DNA of 64,000 nucleotides, from contig NC_022792.1 in NCBI RefSeq assembly GCF_000504085.1, positions 992,001 through 1,056,000 on the forward strand, written 5' to 3'. The stretch comes from Pseudothermotoga elfii DSM 9442 = NBRC 107921 (GTDB taxonomy: Bacteria > Thermotogota > Thermotogae > Thermotogales > DSM-5069). Positions 57,211 through 59,980 of this stretch are shown piece by piece. Numbering within the stretch: position 1 is the first letter of the stretch; every line of letters begins with the position of its first letter. Under the pieces are notes generated by a model that saw only the letters and a program-made list of their open reading frames with translations, was not told where the DNA came from and did not search any database. A program made the position numbers and the translations under genes.

Positions 57211-57281
57211 TATCTTTAATATTAGTAAACCTCACATATATTGACCTGATATTTCAATTAGGGTTCGAGGTAATTCAGCCG

Positions 57282-57385
57282 GGGCAAATATGATATCATC
57301 AGAAGTGAAAAGATTCACCTGAGGTGGAGGAATTGCCCAACACCGAGGGGAATCTCCCCCTCGTTGTTGGAGGGGTTTTTCTTTT
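57282..57385 (+). promoter_or_regulatory. Structured hydF leader with terminator/antiterminator (riboswitch-like)
   Basis: Terminator: CCCCTC (57357-57362) / GAGGGG (57370-57375), loop GTTGTTG, then TTTTTCTTTT. Antiterminator: CCAACA (57337-57342) with TGTTGG (57365-57370), plus CGAGGGG (57344-57350) with CCCCTCG (57357-57363), using the same CCCCTC. Upstream, GGGCAA (57282-57287) / TTGCCC (57333-57338) encloses an inner hairpin GTGAA/TTCAC (57305-57318), like an aptamer closing stem. The 3' arm of that stem overlaps the antiterminator at 57337-57338. No known riboswitch class recognised. Confidence 0.6.
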
Positions 57386-57398
57386 AAGGAGTGATTGT

Positions 57399-58610
57399 AT
57401 GGATTTATCTGCCGGATTTAGAAGATATGTGGCCATAGCTGGTAGAAGAAATGTGGGAAAGTCTTCTTTCCTGAATGCGATTATTGGTCAAAATGTGTCT
57501 ATAGTGAGTGATATAGCCGGGACCACAACTGACCCGGTTTACAAAACCATTGAACTCAATCCCGTTGGCCCTGTTACTTTTATAGATACCCCGGGATTCG
57601 ATGACACTGGTGAACTTGGTAGATTGAGAATTGAAAGGGCAAGAAAAGTTCTCTATCGAGCTGATTGTGGAATCCTCCTTGTTGATAGCTTACCGACGCG
57701 TTACGAAGATGATATCGTTTCTCTGTTCAGGGAAATGGAGATACCATTTTTAATAGTTGTCAATAAAGAGGATTTATTGAAGGAGAAAGTTGACGAGTTG
57801 CTCGGGGTTTATCAACAAAGATATGGTGTCAAGACAATCTCAGTTTCCTCCAAATTAATTAAAGGTTTTGAACTCATTGGAAGAAAAATCAATGAAATAT
57901 TACCCGATGATGATGAAGTGCCGTTTCTTTCTGATCTTATTGAAGGAGGAGATCTGGTTGTTGTAGTTGTTCCGATAGATCTTGGCGCTCCGAAAGGAAG
58001 GCTCATAATGCCTCAAGTTCATGCTATACGGGAAATAATTGATAGAGAAGCTGTAGCCCTTGTTGTAAAAGAAAGAGAATTGAGGTACACGCTGGAGCAA
58101 ATTCATATGAAGCCAAAACTTGTTATAACTGATTCTCAGGTTGTTATGAAAGTAGTTTCTGATATAGATGACGATGTTGAGCTCACCACTTTTTCGATTC
58201 TTGAATCGCGCCACAGAGGCGATCTGGCTTATTTTATTGATAGCGTAAAAACAATAGAGCATCTTCAAGATAATGATACCGTTTTAATAATGGAAGGTTG
58301 TACGCACAGGCCACTTACGGAAGATATTGGCAGAATTAAAATTCCAAGATGGCTTGTTAATCATACTGGAGTTAAACTTAATTTTAAGGTAATCTCAGGT
58401 AGAGATTTTCCCGACCTGAATGAAATTGAAGATACTAAACTCATAATCCACTGTGGAGGGTGTGTACTTAACAGATCTGCCATGATGAGAAGGATTCGTA
58501 TGGCAAAGAGACTTGCCAAACCTATGACAAATTATGGAGTTGTAATTTCATATCTCCATGGTGTGCTGGAAAGAGCAGTCAGGATTTTTCGAAGAGGTGC
58601 TTTAATATGA
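57399..58610 (+). CDS. hydF: [FeFe]-hydrogenase maturation GTPase HydF
   Basis: Scaffold on which the 2Fe subcluster of the H-cluster is built and passed to the hydrogenase. The 403-residue protein has a GTPase domain ([40 protein letters not shown]), a dimerisation domain, and the iron-sulfur motif [16 protein letters not shown] with [11 protein letters not shown] (CxHx...HCxxC). ATG 57399 has AAGGAGTGAT; GTG 57324 lies inside the terminator hairpins and is rejected. It overlaps the aspartase by 4 bases. HydE and HydG are not in the window. Confidence 0.95.
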
Positions 58611-59980
58611 GAAAAGAGAAGGATTATCTGGGTGAGATTGAAGTAGAAGATGATGTTTATTATGGAATTCATACTAAAAGGGCTCTTATCAATTTTCCAG
58701 CTACTAGCGAAAAGCTGGATGATACCTTTATCTGGGCATATTTTACAATAAAAAAAGCTTGTGCTTTGTTAAATGCAGAACTTGGATACTTGGATGAAAA
58801 AATTTCTGTGGCTATAACCCGGGCATGTGATGAATGGCAGTTTCTAAAAGATCACATTGTAATTGACCCACTTTGTGGCGGAGCTGGTACATCTGTGAAT
58901 ATGAATGTAAACGAGGTGATTGCGAACAGAGCTTCCGAAATACTCGGTCGAAGAAAAGGAGAATACATAGTTGATCCTATCCTTCATGTAAATTTGCACC
59001 AATCTACAAATGACACTTTCCCGACGGCAGGCAAAATAGCTGTGATTGTAAAGTTAAGAGAATTGATCAATGAAGTTATAAACCTCCAGGATAAGATTCA
59101 GCAGAAAGAAAAAGAATTTTACTCAATAAAGAAACCTGGAAGAACTCAGTTGATGGATGGTCCCCCCATAATGCTCGGTCAGGAATTTGGTTCTTTTGCG
59201 GATGCACTTGCAAGAGACAGGTGGCGTTTATACAAAGTTGAAGAAAGAATAAGAACTGTTAATATAGGTGGTACCGCTATTGGCACAGGGATAGGTGCTC
59301 CAAAAGAGTATATATTAAAAATCGTAGACAAAATACGGCAGCTCTGTGGTGTGAAAATATCAAAGGCGGAAAATCTCATAGATTCTACACAGAACTGGGA
59401 TGTTTTCTCTGAAGTTCATGGCCTTCTGAAATCTCTTGCTGTAAACCTTTACAAAATATCCAATGATATTAGACTTCTCGCAAGTGGTCCAAAAACAGCT
59501 ATTGGAGAAATTATTCTTCCACAAATTCAGGCAGGTAGTTCTATCATGCCCGGTAAGATCAATCCGGTTGTTTGTGAATATGTAATGCAACTTTGCCATG
59601 TTGTTTTTGCAAATGACGTTTTAATAGCTCACGCTTGCTCACTTGGTAATCTGGAACTCAATCAATTTGCTCCATTGATTGTCCATTATACGCTCAAATC
59701 ACTGGACTTTTTGAAGAATTCCTGTATAGCTTTGTCGGCGTATATACCTTTCATAAAAGCTGATGAAAGAAAGTGCAGTGAAAATCTCGAAAGATCAACA
59801 GCGCTTCTTACACCACTGATAAATATTTTCGGGTATAAGGAGGTTTCTGAGGCAATAAAAATAGCTAACTGGGACCTTTACCGAGCAATTGAGATCCTCT
59901 CAGAAAAAAGGCATATAGATCCACAGGAAATTATTCAAAATCTTAACATAGATAAAATGGCAGGGCTTGGTTATCACTGA
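58607..59980 (+). CDS. aspA: Aspartate ammonia-lyase
   Basis: Converts aspartate to fumarate and ammonia. The 457-residue protein of the fumarase/aspartase superfamily has [27 protein letters not shown]-type [31 protein letters not shown], and the signature [15 protein letters not shown] with the catalytic serine. Its start overlaps hydF (ATGA). Aspartase genes occur in hydrogenase-maturation clusters of other anaerobes, so a link, perhaps nitrogen supply for the cluster's bridging ligand, is inferred. Confidence 0.9.

What the first reader, a model, noticed from the sequence alone, without database searches (positions are those of the whole stretch)
57241..57398. Riboswitch-like transcription attenuator before hydF
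Two mutually exclusive hairpins compete for CCCCTC 57357-57362: a 13-pair antiterminator and a terminator with TTTTTCTTTT. An upstream closed stem (GGGCAA/TTGCCC) containing a hairpin overlaps the antiterminator by two bases, as an aptamer would. I know no described RNA regulator of H-cluster maturation genes of this form. The ligand could relate to hydrogen metabolism, iron-sulfur or amino acid state (aspA follows).
Basis: partly seen in the sequence, partly recalled or inferred. Interest (0 to 1): 0.65.

Follow-up and report, generated by a model that had tools for sequence, protein, structure and literature searches.

The report
New RNA switch for hydrogenase maturation genes
A short folded RNA at the start of the hydF message, unknown to RNA databases, recurs in front of the genes that build the active site of [FeFe]-hydrogenases in two bacterial phyla, where it probably turns those genes off; this points to an undescribed way of controlling biological hydrogen production.

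Summary
The true element is 57312-57354 (+): one stem interrupted by two symmetric 2x2 purine loops. Each strand reads 5'-CU-GA-N4-RA-GG-3'. Folding it breaks the antiterminator (57339-57368) and frees the terminator (57357-57375).

A covariance model finds it in 61 of 103 Thermotogota genomes, one or two copies each. Nearly all copies whose flanks I read precede TM1266, hydG, hydF or hydE. Covariation is strong (score 0.333, slid controls at most 0.135). In family f5 the P1 3' strand is instead a Shine-Dalgarno sequence.

Clostridia carry the same symmetric element. A model built only from clostridial copies finds Thermotogota copies (E to 8e-6), though not the window copy. In 291 clostridial genomes its 30 best genomes all have the hit in a TM1266 or hydG locus; weaker hits include hydF, hydE and aspA leaders and some false ones. 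Rfam has no match.

The sensed partner is open: I favour the TM1266-family protein (about 0.5; symmetric core, near-total co-occurrence). A small-molecule riboswitch is the main rival; two clostridial genomes have the RNA but no detectable TM1266.

The parts
57312..57354 (+). Sensor (aptamer-like) stem: GAUUC(A)CCU-GA-GGUG-GA-GG-AAUUGC-CC-AA-CACC-GA-GGGGAAUC
   Evidence: CM R1 match G000:C1:1049309-1049357, E 2e-15 (this copy is one of the 9 training sequences); structure from 9 then 74 relatives with covariation
57312..57320 (+). P1 5' strand, pairs with 57347-57354 (A57317 bulged)
   Evidence: P1 pairs vary on both sides in relatives (U-A, C-G, G-C, A-U)
57321..57322 (+). Internal loop 1, 5' GA, faces GA 57345-57346
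   Evidence: GA in 64 of 72 distinct copies
57323..57326 (+). P2 5' strand GGUG, pairs with CACC 57341-57344
   Evidence: second pair G-C in 45, A-U in 25 of 72 copies
57327..57328 (+). Internal loop 2, 5' GA, faces AA 57339-57340
   Evidence: purine-A in nearly all copies
57339..57368 (+). Antiterminator, uses the P2 and P1 3' strands of the sensor
   Evidence: duplex of sensor 3' strand with downstream sequence has z < -2 in 50 of 74 copies, but the script's offset cut this copy's C run, so the window is not scored fairly there
57357..57375 (+). Intrinsic terminator hairpin
   Evidence: terminators at the same place in relatives
57376..57385 (+). T-run of the terminator (TTTTTCTTTT)
57386..57391 (+). 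Shine-Dalgarno AAGGAG of hydF
57399..58610 (+). hydF, [FeFe]-hydrogenase H-cluster maturation GTPase, 403 aa
   Evidence: TIGR03918 E 2e-154; PF18128/PF18133 domains
58607..59980 (+). aspA-like aspartate ammonia-lyase, overlaps hydF by 4 nt
   Evidence: NF008909 E 5e-176; next to hydF in many relatives
57289..57294 (+). Probable -10 box TATGAT (start near 57301), inferred
   Evidence: -10-like hexamers cluster 10-35 nt upstream of the core in 73 copies; not measured

Best explanation
Positions 57312-57391 are a cis-acting attenuator that switches hydF-aspA off when its sensor stem is folded or bound. SHOWN by comparison: the sensor stem is a conserved, covarying RNA (P1, loop, P2, loop, P3) found mostly before H-cluster maturation genes, and its 3' strand is the same segment that forms the antiterminator. 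INFERRED: during transcription the sensor forms first; if its partner stabilises it, the antiterminator cannot form, the terminator 57357-57375 does, and transcription stops near 57385. If not, the antiterminator forms and hydF-aspA is read. Other copies give the same OFF logic by other means: the P1 3' strand is the Shine-Dalgarno sequence of the first gene, or of a small upstream ORF that runs into a terminator. LIKELY but unproven (about 0.5): the partner is the TM1266-family protein (TIGR03959/PF21699), a small 'putative regulator' with no recognised DNA-binding domain, usually the first gene behind the RNA, acting as a dimer on the two-fold symmetric core, so that the operon represses itself and hydF in trans. 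The confidence given is for the regulatory RNA and its OFF logic, not for the partner.
For: CM R1: 61 of 103 Thermotogota genomes, 1-2 copies in nearly all. Of 77 alignment rows read, 3 are false hits (one before a ribosomal protein gene, two on the reverse strand) and 2 have no recognised gene in the stretch held; the others precede TM1266-hydG, hydF, hydE or hydG. Covariation: 91.7% of cells paired, 9 pairs with changes on both sides, score 0.333 against at most 0.135 for slid controls. Symmetry: loop dinucleotides after CU are GA in 64/72 and 67/72; those before GG are GA/AA in 36/35 and 35/31. Antiterminator duplex z < -2 in 50 of 74. Clostridia: strict symmetric descriptor upstream of 19 of 90 TM1266 genes, 0 on the reverse strand, mean 0.6 and maximum 3 in 40 shuffle rounds. 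Model R3 from clostridial copies alone finds Thermotogota hyd leaders, L131 E 8e-6, L078 E 7e-5. In 291 clostridial genomes the best hits of 30 genomes all lie in TM1266 or hydG loci; of 20 further hits 13 lie before TM1266, hydG, hydE, hydF or aspA, 5 lie inside reading frames, 2 have no hyd gene nearby. TM1266 link: all 61 RNA-bearing Thermotogota genomes have TM1266; 5 hydG genomes of genus g29 lack both TM1266 and RNA, their congener G066 has both. In Clostridia 2 of 42 RNA-bearing genomes lack TM1266 against 54 of 246 hydG genomes (p 0.002; genomes are related, so p is only a guide). No Rfam match.
Against: No expression or binding data. TM1266 usually sits next to the RNA, so co-occurrence is partly linkage; for RNA copies not next to TM1266 in Clostridia the gene is about as frequent as in hydG genomes generally. 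Two genomes (G301, G121) have good copies before hydG and no TM1266 even at E 5 beyond an E 0.4 fragment, though completeness is unknown. The clostridial base-pair counts are partly circular because copies were chosen by a descriptor that requires pairing. The window copy is atypical (P3 ...CC-AA) and is not found by R3. In its own ensemble the antiterminator form is the minimum (-36.2 kcal/mol for 85-86 nt), so OFF needs a partner or kinetic trapping. Net charge of TM1266 is only about +1.
Confidence: 0.9

Rival explanations
1. The element is a small-molecule riboswitch: a metabolite or metal compound of H-cluster assembly binds the two purine loops and stabilises the stem; TM1266 is only a co-regulated gene.
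For: Classic riboswitch layout with three expression platforms giving the same OFF logic; RNA before hydG in two genomes without detectable TM1266; also before hydF, hydE and aspA.
Against: The core is two-fold symmetric and P2 sequence is free in Clostridia, unusual for a small-ligand pocket; RNA and TM1266 are missing together in genus g29.
Confidence: 0.3
2. The symmetric RNA is bound by another dimeric protein or maturase (for example HydF, HydG or a general regulator).
For: Symmetric core; the genes controlled are the maturases themselves.
Against: In genus g29 maturases are kept but the RNA is missing.
Confidence: 0.15
3. The first reader's aptamer (stem 57282-57287 with 57333-57338 enclosing a hairpin) is the sensor.
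For: The complementarity exists in the window.
Against: Its 5' arm is outside the conserved region and lies in the probable promoter in relatives; its 3' arm belongs to P3 and its loop in the conserved fold.
Confidence: 0.02
4. The hairpins are only a promoter-proximal terminator with an accidental alternative fold.
Against: Covariation, gene specificity and recurrence in two phyla.
Confidence: 0.02

Closest known systems
Riboswitch-type transcription attenuators (general kind)
   Same: Sensor 3' strand shared with an antiterminator; terminator or Shine-Dalgarno platforms.
   Different: No Rfam class matches; two-fold symmetric loops; partner unknown and perhaps a protein.
PyrR-type autoregulatory attenuation (RF00515)
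   Same: Proposed logic: first gene of the operon encodes the RNA-binding protein that favours termination (comparison from general knowledge).
   Different: Rfam PyrR model scores 15.8 bits against a cut-off of 54; sequence and fold differ.
Kink-turn RNAs
   Same: Tandem G.A pairs in an internal loop.
   Different: A kink-turn needs a 3-nt bulge on one strand (general knowledge); here the loops are symmetric 2x2 and occur twice.
Rex control of hydrogenase genes (DNA level)
   Same: Same genes: in Caldicellulosiruptor bescii Rex acts on the unit 'CopG family regulator'-hydG (PMC6391272).
   Different: DNA operator and repressor; Rex-like sites often overlap the promoters of these leaders but the RNA element is separate.

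Membership tests
Any Rfam 15 family | Score at or above the curated gathering threshold | tested here: not met
   0 hits in the window; 19 loci with copies gave only a separate TPP riboswitch, which shows that the search works
PyrR-binding attenuator RF00515 | Covariance model score of at least 54 bits | tested here: not met
   15.8 bits, E 8.5
Riboswitch / attenuator (kind) | Conserved, covarying sensor domain in the 5' leader | tested here: met
Riboswitch / attenuator (kind) | Sensor overlaps a mutually exclusive expression platform | tested here: met
Riboswitch (strict sense) | Direct binding of a small molecule without protein | not testable with these tools
   needs in-line probing or binding assays
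Protein-binding autoregulatory leader | Regulator encoded in the controlled operon, RNA present only with it | tested here: inconclusive
   61 of 61 Thermotogota genomes, 40 of 42 clostridial genomes; two exceptions and linkage
Kink-turn | Asymmetric 3-nt bulge followed by tandem GA | tested here: not met
   2x2 loops in A4
Rex operator in the window | TTGTGAANNNNTTCACAA upstream of or over the promoter | tested here: inconclusive
   57305-57318 has the GTGAA/TTCAC core but 4 mismatches overall; about a quarter of shuffles do as well or better

The most novel reading that the evidence does not exclude
TM1266-family proteins, with a solved structure (2NZC) and the name 'putative regulator' but without a demonstrated target in the literature I could search, are dimeric RNA-binding attenuation proteins. 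They bind a two-fold symmetric RNA before H-cluster maturation genes in Thermotogota and Clostridia, so that [FeFe]-hydrogenase maturation is set by RNA-level feedback.
Probability: 0.5. Interest if true: 0.85.

Novelty: new variant of a known kind. Interest (0 to 1): 0.8.

Why it matters
How cells set the level of [FeFe]-hydrogenase maturases is poorly known. A conserved RNA element across two phyla gives a concrete, testable control point, a candidate target for an orphan 'regulator' family, and an RNA with unusual two-fold symmetry. It may also help hydrogen-production engineering in thermophiles.

Tried and rejected
Rfam at gathering and permissive thresholds: nothing relevant. Thermotogota model R2 in Clostridia: 5 of 18 hits lie beside TM1266, most of the rest inside reading frames; this led to the symmetric descriptor and to R3. 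R2 on the first clostridial TM1266 leaders (L138-L141) and on L132-L136: no hit. Rex operator in the window: not better than chance. The duplex test used an offset that cut the C-run of the hydF-type leaders, so it under-scores those copies including the window. The 93-aa ORF searched in viral contigs: nothing. Literature searches for TM1266, for riboswitches with hydrogenase maturation, and in two genome-wide RNA discovery papers: no description.

Full report
1. The observation. The 85-nt leader is more stable than its shuffles (z -3.3). Energies for the window copy: sensor plus terminator -32.1, antiterminator helix alone -17.2 kcal/mol. Folding growing transcripts gives the sensor at 57356-57360, the antiterminator at 57372, sensor plus terminator at 57376-57380, and an extended antiterminator form (-36.2) at full length. 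So the switch is plausible but the resting state is not settled by energies.

2. The true sensor. DNA comparison shows conservation starting at about 57314-57316. Orienting hydF loci gave nine leaders. Of seven folded singly, six show one shared stem (the window copy's minimum is the antiterminator form): P1, a 2x2 purine loop, 4-bp P2, a second 2x2 purine loop, and P3. In the window this is 57312-57354. Nine sequences already show changes on both sides in P1. A covariance model (R1) searched over 103 Thermotogota genomes hit 61 of them, almost always one or two copies, best E 1e-18. The second copy in the window's own genome is G000:C1:1854663-1854707(-), before a TM1266-family gene followed by hydG, a 93-aa ORF and hydE. 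Alignment A4 of 74 copies: 91.7% of cells paired, covariation 0.333 against at most 0.135 when partners are slid. E-values are rough because calibration is short, and cells count related sequences.

3. Genes and platforms. Reading the sequence after each copy shows TM1266-hydG in most, hydF in others (the window type), hydE in one and hydG alone in a few. Three of 77 rows are false hits; two copies (L118, L125) have no recognised gene in the stretch held. Three platforms occur: (i) terminator/antiterminator, with the sensor's 3' strand complementary to the downstream segment (duplex z < -2 in 50 of 74); (ii) the P1 3' strand is the Shine-Dalgarno sequence (f5 copies such as L092, L093, L101); (iii) in genus g26, a Shine-Dalgarno sequence for a small ORF that overlaps a hairpin terminator (L106, L110, L112, L116). 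All predict OFF when the sensor is folded; this is inference. -10-like hexamers concentrate 10-35 nt before the core, so the RNA probably sits at the very 5' end of the message.

4. Clostridia. TM1266 occurs in 235 of 391 genomes of the class. Upstream of these genes I recognised the same design with other P2 sequences. A strict descriptor (two strands YY-RA-N3/4-RA-RR, complementary) is met upstream of 19 of 90 such genes, 0 times on the reverse strand, and 0.6 times on average in shuffles. Model R3, built from 22 clostridial copies, was then used in two ways. Across phyla, it finds all 8 Thermotogota loci offered besides the window and its duplicate L055, at their hyd leaders; it misses the window copy. 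Across 291 clostridial genomes, the hits of the 30 best genomes all lie in TM1266 or hydG loci (three loci are cut by contig ends, so distances there are not exact, and some of the 30 were in the training set). Of 20 further hits, 13 precede TM1266, hydG, hydE, hydF or aspA, 5 lie inside reading frames and 2 have no such gene nearby. The base-pair count of A5 (98.5%) is circular for P2 because the descriptor required it; the outermost P1 pair was not required and is formed in 19 of 22.

5. What binds it. Symmetry: the loop dinucleotide after CU is GA in 64 and 67 of 72 copies on the two strands, and that before GG is GA or AA in nearly equal shares on both. This is what a two-fold symmetric protein would select. 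All 61 RNA-bearing Thermotogota genomes have a strong TM1266 match. Five hydG genomes of genus g29 have neither TM1266 nor RNA, while G066 of the same genus has both; that may be a single deletion of adjacent elements. In f11 and in g26 TM1266 lies elsewhere in the genome, yet RNA and gene are both kept. Against: in Clostridia 2 of 35 TM1266-less hydG leaders carry good copies (G301, G121), and copies not linked to TM1266 show no clear excess of the gene. In total 2 of 42 RNA-bearing clostridial genomes lack TM1266 against 54 of 246 hydG genomes. I hold the TM1266 partner at about 0.5 and a small-molecule riboswitch at about 0.3.

6. Known or new. No Rfam family, nothing in the searchable literature. 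PMC6391272 reports Rex acting on the hydG unit of C. bescii; PMC7039931 lists TM1266, hydG, hydE and hydF of T. neapolitana in its table of genes responding to CO2 (values 5.98, 6.39, 7.52, 1.28). I therefore call it a new class within the known kind of attenuating leader RNAs. Most subscription papers were not searchable, so an earlier description cannot be excluded.

Noticed in passing
window 57399-58610; L084 (G008): hydF of this genome is 75% identical to G008 and g5 proteins but only 51-52% to its congeners G001/G002, where hydF sits in the TM1266-hydG-hydE operon; in G008 that operon holds two hydF fragments while an intact hydF with its own leader lies elsewhere. Suggests replacement of hydF together with its RNA.
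   Followed up: partly
L078:3673-3954 (-): A 93-aa ORF between hydG and hydE is conserved in most Thermotogota hyd operons but matches no Pfam or NCBIfam family.
   Followed up: partly
upstream of Thermotogota copies, e.g. L119, L099, L117: 35 of 73 leaders have a Rex-like site with at most 3 mismatches near the promoter; about 5% of shuffles do.
   Followed up: partly
L178, L172, L213, L192, L216, L219: Two copies of the element in tandem before clostridial TM1266 genes.
   Followed up: no
L106, L110, L112, L116, L118: Small ORFs whose Shine-Dalgarno sequence is the element's P1 3' strand and which overlap a hairpin terminator, in genus g26 and a relative.
   Followed up: partly
L320 (G197:C1:499394-499430): The element precedes an aspA-hydF pair, tying aspartate ammonia-lyase to H-cluster maturation.
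   Followed up: partly
L078:5770-5880 (+): TPP riboswitch (RF00059) on the opposite strand beside the TM1266 operon leader.
   Followed up: no
G000:C1:884177-884392 and similar in other Thermotogota: Weak second PF21699-like matches (E about 1e-4 to 1e-7) in most Thermotogota genomes with TM1266, identity unknown.
   Followed up: no
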